A DNA stretch of 64,000 bases from positions 62,001 to 126,000 of the forward strand of contig CANBSP010000002.1 of the NCBI GenBank assembly GCA_947372165.1. The letters run 5' to 3'. The notes under the pieces were generated by a model, which saw only the letters and a list, made by a program, of their open reading frames with translations, was not told the origin of the DNA and made no database searches. This document shows, piece by piece, positions 48,872 through 52,728 of the stretch. The DNA comes from Actinomycetota bacterium. Lineage in GTDB: Bacteria > Actinomycetota > Actinomycetes > Nanopelagicales > Nanopelagicaceae. Within the stretch, counting starts at the first letter, position 1; every line of letters starts with the position of its first letter. The translations under genes and the position numbers were made by a program.

Positions 48872-48916
48872 CTGATTCCCCTGATTCCCCTGATTCCCCT
48901 GATTCCCCTGATTGGC
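48872..48916. repeat. 9-bp tandem repeat in the divergent gap before the TauE gene
   Basis: Four perfect CTGATTCCC units and a partial fifth occupy the intergenic region between the SOS cassette and the TauE/SafE gene. This copy is not in a convincing coding frame. Confidence 0.88.
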
Positions 48917-48950
48917 AGGCAGAAGCTCACATACCTGCCACCATAAGCCC

Positions 48951-49700
48951 ATGGTCCTCATACAGGCGCTCCTTGCCGGCTGCTTTATCGGCTCGGTATT
49001 GGGTTTTGTAGGCGCAGGCGGTGCGATGGTCTCTGTCCCCATCCTGCTCTACATCTTCCACTTCACGAACCAGCAGGCGACGATCGCAGCTCTTGTCATT
49101 GTGGGTCTTGCTGCAGCATCTGGGGTCATTCCAAAATTCAAGAGCAAAGAAGTTCTTGTTCGAGAAGCGGTCTCCATCTGGGCGATTGGCCTGGTCGCAA
49201 CCCTCTCCATGACAGCGCTGGCAAGCCATATACATCCCAACGTTCTGCACATCGGTTTTGCACTCGTTCTCATTGTTGCAGGTGGCTCAATGCTTCGTGG
49301 ACCCATCACGGCAGACCCAGAACACCGGATGTCTCTACCAGTTCTCATCCTCGTATCACTGATTGTCGGCACACTCACTGGCCTCTTCGGTATCGGTGGC
49401 GGCTTTCTTGCCATTCCAGTACTCGTCCTCTTTTATAACACGCCCCAAAATAAGGCGGCCGGGACATCACTGCTGATCATCACGATGAACTGTGCAACAT
49501 CATTTTTTGAACGCTATAAGAGTTGGCACGTCGTGGAGTGGAAGACACCCTTCACCATTGCACTGGTTGCAATCGTCATCTCGCGCCTGGCATCTCAGCG
49601 GAGCGGAAAGGTAAATGCCAAGCTGCTACGTAGAGCATTTGGTTATCTGCTCTTTAGCCTCTCGGCATTCACCATCCTTAAAACTTTCTTCCTCAACTAA
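48951..49700 (+). CDS. TauE/SafE-family membrane transporter
   Basis: A 249-residue protein of seven or eight hydrophobic segments with the family pattern in two halves: FIGSVLGFVGAGGAMVSVPIL (cut here at 20: FIGSVLGFVGAGGAMVSVPI) near the N-terminus and GTLTGLFGIGGGFLAIPVL in the middle. The family exports sulfite, sulfonates or other anions. Start is ATG 48951 (MVLIQALLAG). No neighbouring gene reveals the substrate. Confidence 0.85.
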   Translation: MVLIQALLAGCFIGSVLGFVGAGGAMVSVPILLYIFHFTNQQATIAALVIVGLAAASGVIPKFKSKEVLVREAVSIWAIGLVATLSMTALASHIHPNVLHIGFALVLIVAGGSMLRGPITADPEHRMSLPVLILVSLIVGTLTGLFGIGGGFLAIPVLVLFYNTPQNKAAGTSLLIITMNCATSFFERYKSWHVVEWKTPFTIALVAIVISRLASQRSGKVNAKLLRRAFGYLLFSLSAFTILKTFFLN

Positions 49701-49718: not shown

Positions 49719-50660
49719 CTAGCTCTTGCGCTGATACCACTTTCGCCAGATCAGTCGATGAACCGGTATCCAGTAAGGGATTCGAGAGATAATCGGTAAC
49801 AATGGCAAGAAGATCAAACCAAGGCTCAAGACTCCCATCAGTGACATCACAAGGATGTCAGCATTGCCTGACGATTTGAATGGTTCGATCTGATACCAGA
49901 GTGAATAGAGCCACAACCATGATTGGCCCGGCCATGATCCAGTCTCATTCATGACGCCCCATTGATCGCCACTTAAATGTTGAGCTGCAGCTTTATCTGG
50001 GAAATAAGTACCACTATCTGCCAAGAAGAGTAGAGGCTTTGTAAAGTTAGTAGGGAGGTTGGTATCACTTGTTGTGAGTGCGCCGTCGAGCGCGCCACTC
50101 TTGGCCATCGAAAAGAGCGATGTCACAAGTGTTGGAACCGGTCCAAACTTTCCAGTGGGGTCGGCGATCGATAAGGCTTTTCCATCCTTTGAGAGTGCGT
50201 CGGCGTATGCACTTGCCCACTCAATCTCCTGCTTCGCAGAAGCTGCGCCCCAGGTAGCGATGGCGGATTTCGTCACGCTATCAGGCTCGATTGAGAGCGG
50301 TTCAATCACAAAACTCTTTGCTGGGTCGATTGGAATGCGAACGCCTGCGATCTTCCCCAGGTTCACTGGGCCAATATTTTGACCGCTGCCATTGGTGTTA
50401 TATGGCGGACCATAGGAAGCGCTCGTAGTCGTTCCAGCGAGCTCACCTGCCGCTGTCTGCACGAAATCTGCCGGAGCCTCGGTCGCCCAGGATTGCATCG
50501 TGAGCGCCTTCTCATCCGGAGAACTGAAGAGTGCAGCGAGTGAGAGAGCAAGGAAACCGACCACGACGACTGCAATGACGATCTCTTTCACAAGATCATA
50601 TTCACGAAGCGGGCCACTCCATTTTTTCGATGGATCAATACTTGAACGGTTATATTTCAT
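49719..50660 (-). CDS. Cytochrome b subunit IV-like protein with large extracytoplasmic insert
   Basis: A 313-residue protein, last gene of the split cytochrome b operon. One membrane helix (about 27-49), then about 190 mostly polar residues (about 50-240) rich in Ala, Ser and Thr, then WPGQSWLWLYSLWYQIEP and one or two hydrophobic helices (DILVMSLMGVLSLGLIFLPL). The end region resembles the C-terminal cytochrome b/subunit IV fold around the Qo site, but the usual PEWY motif is not seen. No CxxCH is present. The insert has no recognised domain. It starts 2 nt after the b6-like gene. The call rests on gene order plus weak motif likeness. Confidence 0.6.
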   Translation of the reverse strand: MKYNRSSIDPSKKWSGPLREYDLVKEIVIAVVVVGFLALSLAALFSSPDEKALTMQSWATEAPADFVQTAAGELAGTTTSASYGPPYNTNGSGQNIGPVNLGKIAGVRIPIDPAKSFVIEPLSIEPDSVTKSAIATWGAASAKQEIEWASAYADALSKDGKALSIADPTGKFGPVPTLVTSLFSMAKSGALDGALTTSDTNLPTNFTKPLLFLADSGTYFPDKAAAQHLSGDQWGVMNETGSWPGQSWLWLYSLWYQIEPFKSSGNADILVMSLMGVLSLGLIFLPLLPIISRIPYWIPVHRLIWRKWYQRKS

Positions 50661-50662
50661 CG

Positions 50663-51271
50663 TTACTCTCCTGCCTCATCAATAGGTGGTACAACGCCTC
50701 TTTTGCGAACCAGTATTACGTGCCAGATCACAATCGCGCCAAGTGCAAGTGGAAGGAGTGAAACGTGCAGCAGAATCGCCTGGCCAGTATTGAGAGTGTT
50801 AAAGAAGGCGCCGATGCCTACCGCATTGAAGCCATCTTTAGCCTGGGTGGCAATCCACTGTGAATCGAAGTTAGTTTGAATAATGTAACCGGTAAAACCC
50901 GTGATGATCGATGCGAAGAATGCAAGACACCCTGTGATCCAGGTAGCGAGTCTTCGACCACGCCATGCTGCCATCCAGAATTTGCCCCAAAGGTGCACAA
51001 CCATGAAGACGAAGAAGAGTTCGACGCTCCAGAGGTGAACTGAGTTCACATAGTGGCCGATCTTGGAGGTGTGCCACCATTCTGGACCTTCAAGGGTGAG
51101 ATAGAGGCCAGAGGCGATTAGCATAATAAAGGCTGCGAGAGTGGCGACGCCAAAGATATAAATCCAGGAAGCAACGTAGGCAGGTTGATGATCGGGAAGG
51201 AGATCCTCAGGCTCAAACTTCTCTAAAGTGGCCGCCCTAACACGACCAGTCCATGATGCTTTCGCGCTCAC
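50663..51271 (-). CDS. Cytochrome b6-like diheme membrane subunit
   Basis: A 202-residue N-terminal cytochrome b domain standing alone. Four membrane helices (about 33-58, 77-100, 112-131, 166-188). Heme ligand pairs are His79/His93 and His169/His184. The second pair has 14 residues between, as in b6-type rather than bc1-type proteins. RKRGVVPP after the last helix is a normal b-domain end. No N-terminal Cys for a covalent heme ci. Actinobacteria normally have a fused QcrB of over 500 residues, so this split b6-like subunit is extra or divergent. It overlaps the small membrane gene by ATGA. Confidence 0.82.
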   Translation of the reverse strand: MSAKASWTGRVRAATLEKFEPEDLLPDHQPAYVASWIYIFGVATLAAFIMLIASGLYLTLEGPEWWHTSKIGHYVNSVHLWSVELFFVFMVVHLWGKFWMAAWRGRRLATWITGCLAFFASIITGFTGYIIQTNFDSQWIATQAKDGFNAVGIGAFFNTLNTGQAILLHVSLLPLALGAIVIWHVILVRKRGVVPPIDEAGE

Positions 51272-51474
51272 TTTTTACCTCCTGCTTTCGCGCTCTGGCT
51301 TTTAGGCTTTTCATCAGTAGTCTTTTCATGATTGGGAAAGGGCAGAAAGAGCGCGATCAGGAAGAGAACCGCCATCGAAATAATGATGGTGAGGTTTCCG
51401 GCCGAGACCGAAAATGGGCCGAAGCTCAGATAATGGGCAGGGTGGTTAAGGTCAATTGAGAATATTTTCAACAT
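51268..51474 (-). CDS. 68-residue single-helix membrane protein leading the cytochrome b operon
   Basis: One hydrophobic helix (about 25-46) after a short segment with HPAHYLSFGPFSVSAG, then a Lys-rich cytoplasmic tail. It overlaps the b6-like gene by ATGA and is probably a small structural subunit. I do not recognise a family. The PAHYLSFGPFSVSAGN segment could face the quinone side, but that is only a guess. Confidence 0.65.
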   Translation of the reverse strand: MLKIFSIDLNHPAHYLSFGPFSVSAGNLTIIISMAVLFLIALFLPFPNHEKTTDEKPKSQSAKAGGKK

Positions 51475-51650
51475 AATCTTTGGCTCTCCTTCTTGATTCT
51501 CTTGCTGGCCGGGCCTTACATGCGTGACTTACAGGCTCAATAATTGCCCAACGATTGAGAGTTGTTAGATAATTTACTTGTGCTAGCACTCAATTAAGAG
51601 GATGATGAAAATTACAACGAGCCACTCGGCTCAGGCCAGAGGAGATCACC
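51475..51650. other. Divergent promoter region between the cytochrome b operon and the HTH gene
   Basis: A 176-bp gap. On plus, TTGCCC and TAGATAAT are 16-17 bp apart and could form a promoter; further down GTGCTAGCAC is a 10-bp palindrome close to the HTH start. The minus-strand promoter for the cytochrome operon must also lie here but I cannot fix it. Confidence 0.35.
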
Positions 51651-51965
51651 ATGGATATCAGAATATTGATGCGAGATCTCACACCCTTTGAACGCCTTGT
51701 TGCCGAGCACATGTGCGATGGACTCTCAAACGCCGCGATTGCGCGCGAGACCGCTCACACTGAAAAGGTTATTGAGAACACAATCTCCCGCATGTCTAAA
51801 GCTTTTAGCATCCAATCCGGGCCTGATGTAAATCTGCGAGTCCTCCTTGCACTCGCCTATCGCGCGCACTTTGGGGATGGATCATTTGAGAAGCTTGGGC
51901 TCGACTGTGTTCATGCCGAAGTTGGTCCAGATGGGCGCACCTACTGCAATCGCCACCTCGATTAA
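51651..51965 (+). CDS. Short LuxR/GerE-type HTH protein
   Basis: A 104-residue protein made mostly of a LuxR-type DNA-binding domain (LTPFERLVAEHMCDGLSNAA, IARETAHTEKVIENTISRMS, residues about 10-55), without a receiver domain. The tail has two cysteines (LGLDCVHAEV and TYCNRHLD). A strong AGAGGAGA site precedes ATG. Divergence from the cytochrome b operon suggests it may control that operon; the cysteines might sense redox state or metal, which is speculation. Confidence 0.78.
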   Translation: MDIRILMRDLTPFERLVAEHMCDGLSNAAIARETAHTEKVIENTISRMSKAFSIQSGPDVNLRVLLALAYRAHFGDGSFEKLGLDCVHAEVGPDGRTYCNRHLD

Positions 51966-52069
51966 TCGCGGCTTCACTTCACACACTATTCTCTAGATCA
52001 CATCTGCTGTAGGGATAGCACTCGTATTTTTCCTATCGAATGACCTAACACTCCTCAATACTTAGCGCC

Positions 52070-52095
52070 AGATGAGATTTCTTCCTATCTCATCT
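52070..52095. other. 9-bp inverted repeat after the HTH gene
   Basis: AGATGAGAT (52070-52078) and ATCTCATCT (52087-52095) with an 8-nt loop. The stem is A/T-rich and followed by TTGT, so it may be a weak terminator for the HTH gene or an operator of the next gene. Confidence 0.4.
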
Positions 52096-52137
52096 TGTAC
52101 AAGTCGAATAGACATGAGTAGAGACGGGGATTGCAAA

Positions 52138-52728
52138 ATGAAGAGAAGAGCTTTCGATAGAATAACAAGCACAGTAGGTCTACTTCTAGCCGTTATTTTA
52201 TTGATCGGTGGCGGCCTCCTTACGTGGGGTGGAACGTTTGCTAATAACCAAGTGAAGGACCAACTTGCAGCACAGAAGATCACACTCCCTGCCGCTACAC
52301 ATAATCCAAAAGAGAGTGCCGATGTCACAGCCTTTTTCAAGGCTAATGGCGGAAAAATGATGACTACTGGTAAGCAAGCACAGATGTACGCAGATCACTA
52401 CATCGCCTTCCACCTTCAAGGCATTGGTGGCGGCAAGGTCTACTCTGAACTCTCAGGTGAAGAGATGGGTGTGAAAGCGGCGCTCACAGCAGATCCAACA
52501 AATGCTGTGCTCTCTGCAAAGGTTGCCGCACTTGACGGCCAAGTAAATACCGTCTTCAAGGGTGAATCGCTACGCGGAATGCTCTTGAATGCATATGCCT
52601 TCTGGCAACTCGGTCAGATAGCAATGATCGCTTCTTGGGTCACCTACTTTGGCGGATTGCTCTTCTTGATCTTGGCACTCATGGGCTTTGCTCATTCACG
52701 CAGAGCCTCTGAAGAGGATGCAATTTAA
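52138..52728 (+). CDS. Two-helix membrane protein of unknown function
   Basis: A 196-residue protein with an N-terminal helix (about 10-31), about 110 polar residues facing outside, and a C-terminal helix (about 163-186) ending in a short charged tail. Actinobacterial proteins of this shape are sometimes labelled aromatic ring-opening dioxygenase LigA; I see no dioxygenase motif and do not adopt that name. Motif-like segments are MYADHYIAFHLQGIGGGKVY and FKGESLRGMLLNAYAFWQLG. ATG 52138 follows GAGACGGGGA; the frame is open 22 codons further upstream but lacks support. A strong terminator follows. Confidence 0.72.
   Translation: MKRRAFDRITSTVGLLLAVILLIGGGLLTWGGTFANNQVKDQLAAQKITLPAATHNPKESADVTAFFKANGGKMMTTGKQAQMYADHYIAFHLQGIGGGKVYSELSGEEMGVKAALTADPTNAVLSAKVAALDGQVNTVFKGESLRGMLLNAYAFWQLGQIAMIASWVTYFGGLLFLILALMGFAHSRRASEEDAI

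What the first reader, a model, noticed from the sequence alone, without database searches (positions are those of the whole stretch)
49719..52728. Split b6-type cytochrome b with a large extracytoplasmic insert, no Rieske, and a private HTH gene
Seen: three coupled minus-strand genes (68-aa one-helix protein; 202-aa diheme b domain with His79/93 and His169/184; 313-aa subunit IV-like protein with a polar insert of about 190 residues and no PEWY). Known: Actinobacteria normally use a fused QcrB beside QcrA and QcrC, and b6-type spacing of the second His pair (14 between) differs from bc1. No Rieske, c-type cytochrome or oxidase gene lies near. A divergent 104-aa LuxR-type protein with two Cys and a two-helix secreted-loop protein follow. 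Inference: a quinone-linked electron-transfer module with an unknown partner, perhaps reading redox state outside the membrane.
Basis: partly seen in the sequence, partly recalled or inferred. Interest (0 to 1): 0.68.

Follow-up and report, generated by a model that had tools for sequence, protein, structure and literature searches.

The report
Rieske-unlinked split cytochrome b with cap
Three adjacent genes encode one heme-containing membrane protein related to the core of respiratory complex III, but with altered quinol-site residues, a roughly 200-residue domain outside the membrane, and no usual partner genes beside it, so these bacteria probably carry a second, undescribed way of moving electrons across their membrane.

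Summary
Three coupled minus-strand genes (68, 202 and 313 aa) form an operon conserved across Actinomycetota and a few neighbouring phyla. The 202-aa protein is a b6-type diheme cytochrome b; all four His ligands are invariant in 45 sequences. The 313-aa protein has no Pfam match, but the predicted structure of a natural three-part fusion from another genome superposes on cytochrome b helices A-F (Z 19, rmsd 3.0 A). So the 313-aa protein is helix E, a helical extracytoplasmic insert of about 200 residues, and the ef/F region; helices G and H are absent. In one clade the first two parts are fused, in another all three, which shows they make one protein. The genome also has a normal ctaE-qcrCAB-ctaCD cluster. 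Rieske and c-type genes are not neighbours of the operon in about 80 loci, and the Qo residues (Arg before the first His, cd1 'PW', PEWY) are replaced by other invariant residues. Two reader claims fail: the HTH gene is order-wide, not private, and 14-residue His spacing also occurs in the genome's own QcrB. Caveat: the genome holds three other exported Rieske genes, and one (DoxX-Rieske) co-occurs with the operon. Electron partner and direction are unknown.

The parts
51268..51474 (-). 68-aa one-helix subunit (N-terminal helix of the fused homologues), motif LxHPAHxxxxGPxxxSxxNL
   Evidence: ORF; homologue upstream of the cytochrome b gene in about 90 loci; fused to the 202-aa part in 11 loci and to all parts in about 10
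50663..51271 (-). 202-aa b6-type diheme cytochrome b domain (helices A-D), His79/93 and His169/184
   Evidence: PF13631, PF00033, PDB cytochrome b6; ligands invariant in 45 homologues
49719..50660 (-). 313-aa subunit: helix E (residues about 23-45), extracytoplasmic helical insert (about 46-246), ef helix and helix F (about 247-283), basic C-terminal tail; no helix G/H
   Evidence: no Pfam match; models; superposition of the fused homologue on cytochrome b helices A-F; fusion to cytochrome b in 14 loci
51651..51965 (+). 104-aa LuxR-type HTH protein, divergent neighbour; not part of the conserved module
   Evidence: weak GerE match; orthologues in most sampled genomes of the order, with or without the operon
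52072..52728 (+). two-helix membrane protein with extracytoplasmic loop; recurrent but not constant neighbour
   Evidence: homologues near the operon in the same genus or close relatives (L015, L017, L018, L020, L151) and in two other lineages (L081, L070)

Best explanation
The three genes make one membrane cytochrome with about seven transmembrane helices. It has two b hemes stacked across the membrane and a large cap outside, built into the loop between helices E and F where complex III has its quinol-oxidation (Qo) site. It is a second bc-type cytochrome b that works without a dedicated, co-encoded Rieske or cytochrome c subunit. Electrons pass through the two hemes between the menaquinone pool at a conserved inner-side site and a donor or acceptor that binds at the remodelled outer site under the cap. 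Shown: operon and fusion, heme ligands, predicted cytochrome b fold, replaced Qo residues, separate qcrCAB, no linked partner. Inferred: heme loading, inner quinone site (conserved Arg189 and Gly192 align with the b6 positions after helix D), transmembrane electron flow. Unknown: partner and direction. I slightly favour menaquinol-driven reduction of an outer-side partner.
For: Heme ligands invariant in 45 of 45. PF13631/PF00033 and b6 hits. Fused homologue model pTM 0.85, insert pLDDT mostly 96-98, superposes on cytochrome b over model 98-600, 277-287 residues at about 3.0 A, Z 19. Gene fusions, each state a single group on the tree. Own genome has ctaE-qcrCAB-ctaCD elsewhere with QcrB carrying PDWY. 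Qo region replaced by other conserved residues: Asn76 for Arg, Gln132-x-Asn134-x-Asp136-x-Gln138 for the cd1 PW stretch, PGQSW for PEWY. One Rieske ORF, about 10 kb away, in about 80 loci and no convincing c-type cytochrome nearby. No conserved Cys and only one well-conserved His (His228) in the insert. No recurrent functional neighbour.
Against: No biochemical data. Which inner and outer sites bind quinone is inferred from aligned residues. Three unlinked exported Rieske proteins exist in the genome and DoxX-Rieske presence is associated with the operon, so a trans-acting Rieske is not excluded. No redox cofactor can be assigned to the cap.
Confidence: 0.5

Rival explanations
1. It is a disguised Rieske/cytochrome b complex: the cytochrome pairs in trans with an unlinked exported Rieske protein, most likely the DoxX-Rieske fusion, and oxidises menaquinol in a modified Q cycle.
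For: Own genome has a DoxX-Rieske protein and two more exported Rieske proteins. DoxX-Rieske is in 43 of 49 operon-bearing against 57 of 102 operon-free genomes of the order (Fisher p 9e-5); all 8 operon-bearing genera are among the 10 genera that have it. Fused DoxX-Rieske ORFs occur in four operon-bearing genomes of another family.
Against: Genomes are not independent and small genomes lack both, so genome reduction may explain the association. DoxX-Rieske is common without the operon. In the single-contig genome G243 the only hit to this query was a QcrA-like Rieske. Canonical Qo residues and PEWY are gone, and the cap sits where a Rieske head would dock (inference). The other two Rieske families show no association.
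Confidence: 0.2
2. It is an outer-side metal, oxygen-species or small-molecule reductase or oxidase working like cytochrome b561 proteins (for example ferric reduction or superoxide oxidation), the cap being the substrate-binding lid.
For: Self-contained operon with no partner genes; many invariant polar and aromatic residues in the cap and at the outer end of the b domain.
Against: No metal-ligand cluster in the cap, and no recurrent iron or oxidative-stress gene neighbourhood seen; substrate not identified.
Confidence: 0.17
3. A membrane redox sensor that reports the quinone or outer redox state, coupled to the divergent HTH protein.
For: HTH gene is divergent from the operon in much of the genus.
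Against: HTH orthologues occur in many genomes lacking the operon, and the operon occurs in other genera with the HTH gene elsewhere. The operon carries no known signalling domain.
Confidence: 0.05

Closest known systems
Cytochrome b6 and subunit IV of the b6f complex (PetB/PetD)
   Same: Split cytochrome b, diheme, His spacing 13/14, helices A-D in one chain and E-F in the next; conserved Arg and Gly after helix D
   Different: No linked Rieske or cytochrome f, 200-residue cap in the E-F loop, no helix G, no PEWY, Arg before first His replaced by Asn; the 313-aa protein matches no Pfam model of subunit IV
Actinobacterial QcrB of the bcc-aa3 supercomplex
   Same: Homologous helices A-F (superposition Z about 18), menaquinone-using phylum, same His spacing
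   Different: QcrB is a single long chain beside qcrA and qcrC with PDWY; this genome has both
ExtP b-type cytochrome of selenite/tellurite reduction gene clusters
   Same: b6-type cytochrome b; NCBIfam match for the 202-aa part at 2.7e-13 but far below the cut-off (50 of 290 bits)
   Different: No c-type cytochromes here; 313-aa cap subunit has no match
SoxC-type archaeal cytochrome b
   Same: Very weak NCBIfam SoxC match of the 313-aa C-terminal part (0.068) and of the 202-aa part (0.057)
   Different: Not significant; no Rieske or oxidase genes nearby

Membership tests
Cytochrome b / b6 fold family (PF00033/PF13631) | four-helix diheme b domain with two His pairs | tested here: met
   fused model superposes on cytochrome b
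Cytochrome bc complex (bc1/b6f/bcc) catalytic core | Rieske iron-sulphur subunit encoded with or near cytochrome b | tested here: not met
   one Rieske ORF, about 10 kb away, among about 80 loci; unlinked Rieske genes exist in the genome
Cytochrome bc complex (bc1/b6f/bcc) catalytic core | c-type cytochrome subunit with the complex | tested here: not met
   no convincing c-type gene near; the only PF13442 hits in the own genome are the two domains of QcrC
[quoted passage not shown]
   aligned position reads PGQSW with P, G and W invariant; the profile alignment there is weak (E 0.011)
Cytochrome b C-terminal family (PF00032) / subunit IV | sequence match to the family model | tested here: inconclusive
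   no match for the 313-aa protein or anywhere in the own genome, but own QcrB and the Corynebacterium glutamicum control were missed too, so the model is insensitive in this phylum
Cytochrome b C-terminal family (PF00032) / subunit IV | helices E and F placed as in cytochrome b | tested here: met
   predicted model of the fused homologue aligns over 98-600 with cytochrome b to about residue 317-333
Cytochrome bc complex (bc1/b6f/bcc) catalytic core | quinol:cytochrome c oxidoreductase activity | not testable with these tools
   needs purified protein

The most novel reading that the evidence does not exclude
An unrecognised class of Rieske-independent cytochrome b complex, widespread but patchy in Actinomycetota, in which an extracytoplasmic domain without conserved cofactor ligands, inserted at the Qo site, takes the place of the Rieske and cytochrome c subunits and directs electrons to a new outer partner.
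Probability: 0.4. Interest if true: 0.8.

Novelty: new variant of a known kind. Interest (0 to 1): 0.6.

Why it matters
Cytochrome b is normally the heart of complex III, working with Rieske and c-type partners. A conserved version without linked partners and with a remodelled Qo site, kept in 1.3 Mb streamlined freshwater genomes beside a normal bcc-aa3 cluster, points to a second quinone-linked electron route whose partner is unknown. It occurs in culturable Arthrobacter, so it can be tested directly. My searches of the open-access library found no description of it; papers outside that library were not searched.

Tried and rejected
(1) Conserved neighbours as a clue to function: clustering of ORFs in 80 loci and a Pfam scan of 109 neighbours gave no recurring partner. 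(2) PDB search with the 313-aa model: no Foldseek match below E 3 and only Z 2.4 by VIA-align; this does not show that the cap fold is new, because it was not folded alone. (3) Profile-profile comparison of the 313-aa family with cytochrome b C-terminal sequences: only E 0.011, probability 3.8%, though the alignment falls on PEWY/KAPWY. (4) Secreted 206-aa and Tat-type 173-aa Rieske proteins as partners: no association with the operon. (5) Plasmid search: none. (6) Paper searches on Rieske-less cytochrome b, Nanopelagicales respiration, DoxX-Rieske: nothing on this operon.

Full report
Observation. The window lies in a 1.36 Mb, 94% complete actinobacterial genome; its nearest relatives are freshwater actinobacterial MAGs, and I infer the Nanopelagicales (acI) lineage. 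Three minus-strand genes overlap or nearly touch: 68 aa (51268-51474), 202 aa (50663-51271), 313 aa (49719-50660). The 202-aa protein matches Cytochrom_B_N_2 (4e-12) and Cytochrome_B (3.8e-7) and aligns with cytochrome b6 chains in the PDB. The other two proteins have no significant Pfam or NCBIfam match.

Conservation. The 313-aa protein was found in 29 of 101 genomes of the family, in 49 of 151 sampled genomes of the order, in 10 other genomes among 396 sampled across the phylum, and in 260 stretches of the genome collection, of which the best 80 were kept. These include cultured Arthrobacter and Pseudarthrobacter, Microbacteriaceae, Acidimicrobiaceae, Solirubrobacterales, Jatrophihabitans, Dormibacterota and single Chloroflexi, Acidobacteria and Saccharibacteria bins (the last three may be mis-binned). 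In nearly all loci long enough to show it, the order small gene, cytochrome b, large gene is kept.

One protein in three pieces. In 11 loci the 68- and 202-aa parts are one ORF; in 14 loci the 202- and 313-aa parts are one ORF, and in about 10 of these all three are one ORF of some 600 residues. On a maximum-likelihood tree of 92 sequences each fused state needs one change only against the other fused state (support 100/99), rows with separate genes being left out of that count; one fused row (L097) stands apart from the main fused clade. The tree largely follows taxonomy, consistent with mainly vertical descent and loss; its root is a midpoint root only.

Fold. A natural fused homologue (L080) was predicted with 101 sequences: mean pLDDT 87.7, pTM 0.85, most of the insert 96-98. 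VIA-align gives Z 19.2, 277 residues, rmsd 3.0 A against mitochondrial cytochrome b and about 18 against mycobacterial and corynebacterial QcrB, spanning model 98-605 and ending near residue 317-333 of mitochondrial cytochrome b. From established knowledge of cytochrome b this range covers helices A-F; G and H are missing. The window's own 313-aa protein was predicted separately: pLDDT 83.5, helix 23-45, helical insert, helices 247-256 and 267-283. By the positive-inside rule and cytochrome b topology the insert lies outside the membrane (inference).

Active-site residues. All four heme His are invariant in 45 sequences; Arg189 and Gly192, which align with the b6 positions after helix D, are invariant. 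The Arg three residues before the first heme His is Asn in 45 of 45, and the cd1 'PW' stretch reads Gln-x-Asn-x-Asp-x-Gln-Trp, with Q132, D136, Q138, K145 and D146 invariant (b6 positions read from the alignment). At the PEWY position the family reads P-G-Q-S-W with P244, G245 and W248 invariant, and Glu239 is invariant just before it. The profile alignment that places this motif is weak; the structure supports it. Within the insert there is no conserved Cys and only one well-conserved His (His228), so no heme c, iron-sulphur or usual copper site can be assigned.

Rest of the chain. The same genome has ctaE, qcrC, qcrA, qcrB (531 aa, PDWY) and ctaCD in one cluster on contig C1 (gene names from sequence features). 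QcrB has the same His spacing, 13 and 14, as the split protein, so spacing does not distinguish it. PF13442 finds only the two QcrC domains. PF00355 finds five Rieske domains: QcrA, a 102-aa one beside suf-like genes, and three that look exported: a DoxX-Rieske fusion, a secreted 206-aa protein and a signal-bearing 173-aa protein.

Test of a trans-acting Rieske. DoxX-Rieske occurs in 43 of 49 operon-bearing and 57 of 102 operon-free genomes of the order (p 9e-5; at genus level 8 of 8 against 2 of 7, p 0.007). The other two Rieske proteins show no association. Four operon-bearing genomes of another family carry a DoxX-Rieske in one ORF, while in single-contig genome G243 the query found only a QcrA-like Rieske. 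Relatedness and genome size are not controlled, and three candidates were tried, so this is a lead only.

Neighbours. No gene family recurs around the operon across lineages, and no Rieske or convincing c-type cytochrome lies near it apart from one Rieske ORF about 10 kb away in L072. Many loci are shorter than 10 kb on one side, so the count is a lower bound. The 104-aa HTH gene has close orthologues in most of 61 genomes of the order, many without the operon, but sits beside the operon in much of this genus. The two-helix protein at 52072-52728 lies near the operon in the genus and in two other lineages.

Verdict. The best reading is a second, Rieske-unlinked b6-type cytochrome b complex with a remodelled outer site capped by an inserted domain, carrying electrons between the menaquinone pool and an unknown outer partner. 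The anatomy is well supported; partner, direction and catalysis are inference.

Noticed in passing
G000:C8:785-1672 (locus L140), also L146-L149: DoxX-Rieske fusion protein, widespread in the order (100 of 151 genomes) and present as a single ORF in another actinobacterial family; associated with the cytochrome operon.
   Followed up: partly
window 52072-52728; L081:8123-8815; L070:4623-5345; L151:2629-3264: Two-helix membrane protein with an extracytoplasmic loop near the operon in several lineages; may be a common actinobacterial protein or an accessory partner.
   Followed up: partly
window 51651-51965: 104-aa LuxR-type HTH protein with two C-terminal Cys has close orthologues, usually one per genome, across most of the order.
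   Followed up: yes
window 48912-49697: TauE/SafE family sulfite exporter-like gene downstream and convergent, conserved beside the operon only in close relatives.
   Followed up: partly
L105 and L106 (G257): Two deeply diverged copies of the large gene and cytochrome b gene in one genome, at about 37% identity and on a long branch of the tree; no 68-aa homologue was detected there.
   Followed up: no
G022: A same-genus genome, 99% complete, lacks both the operon and the HTH orthologue, as if both were lost together.
   Followed up: no
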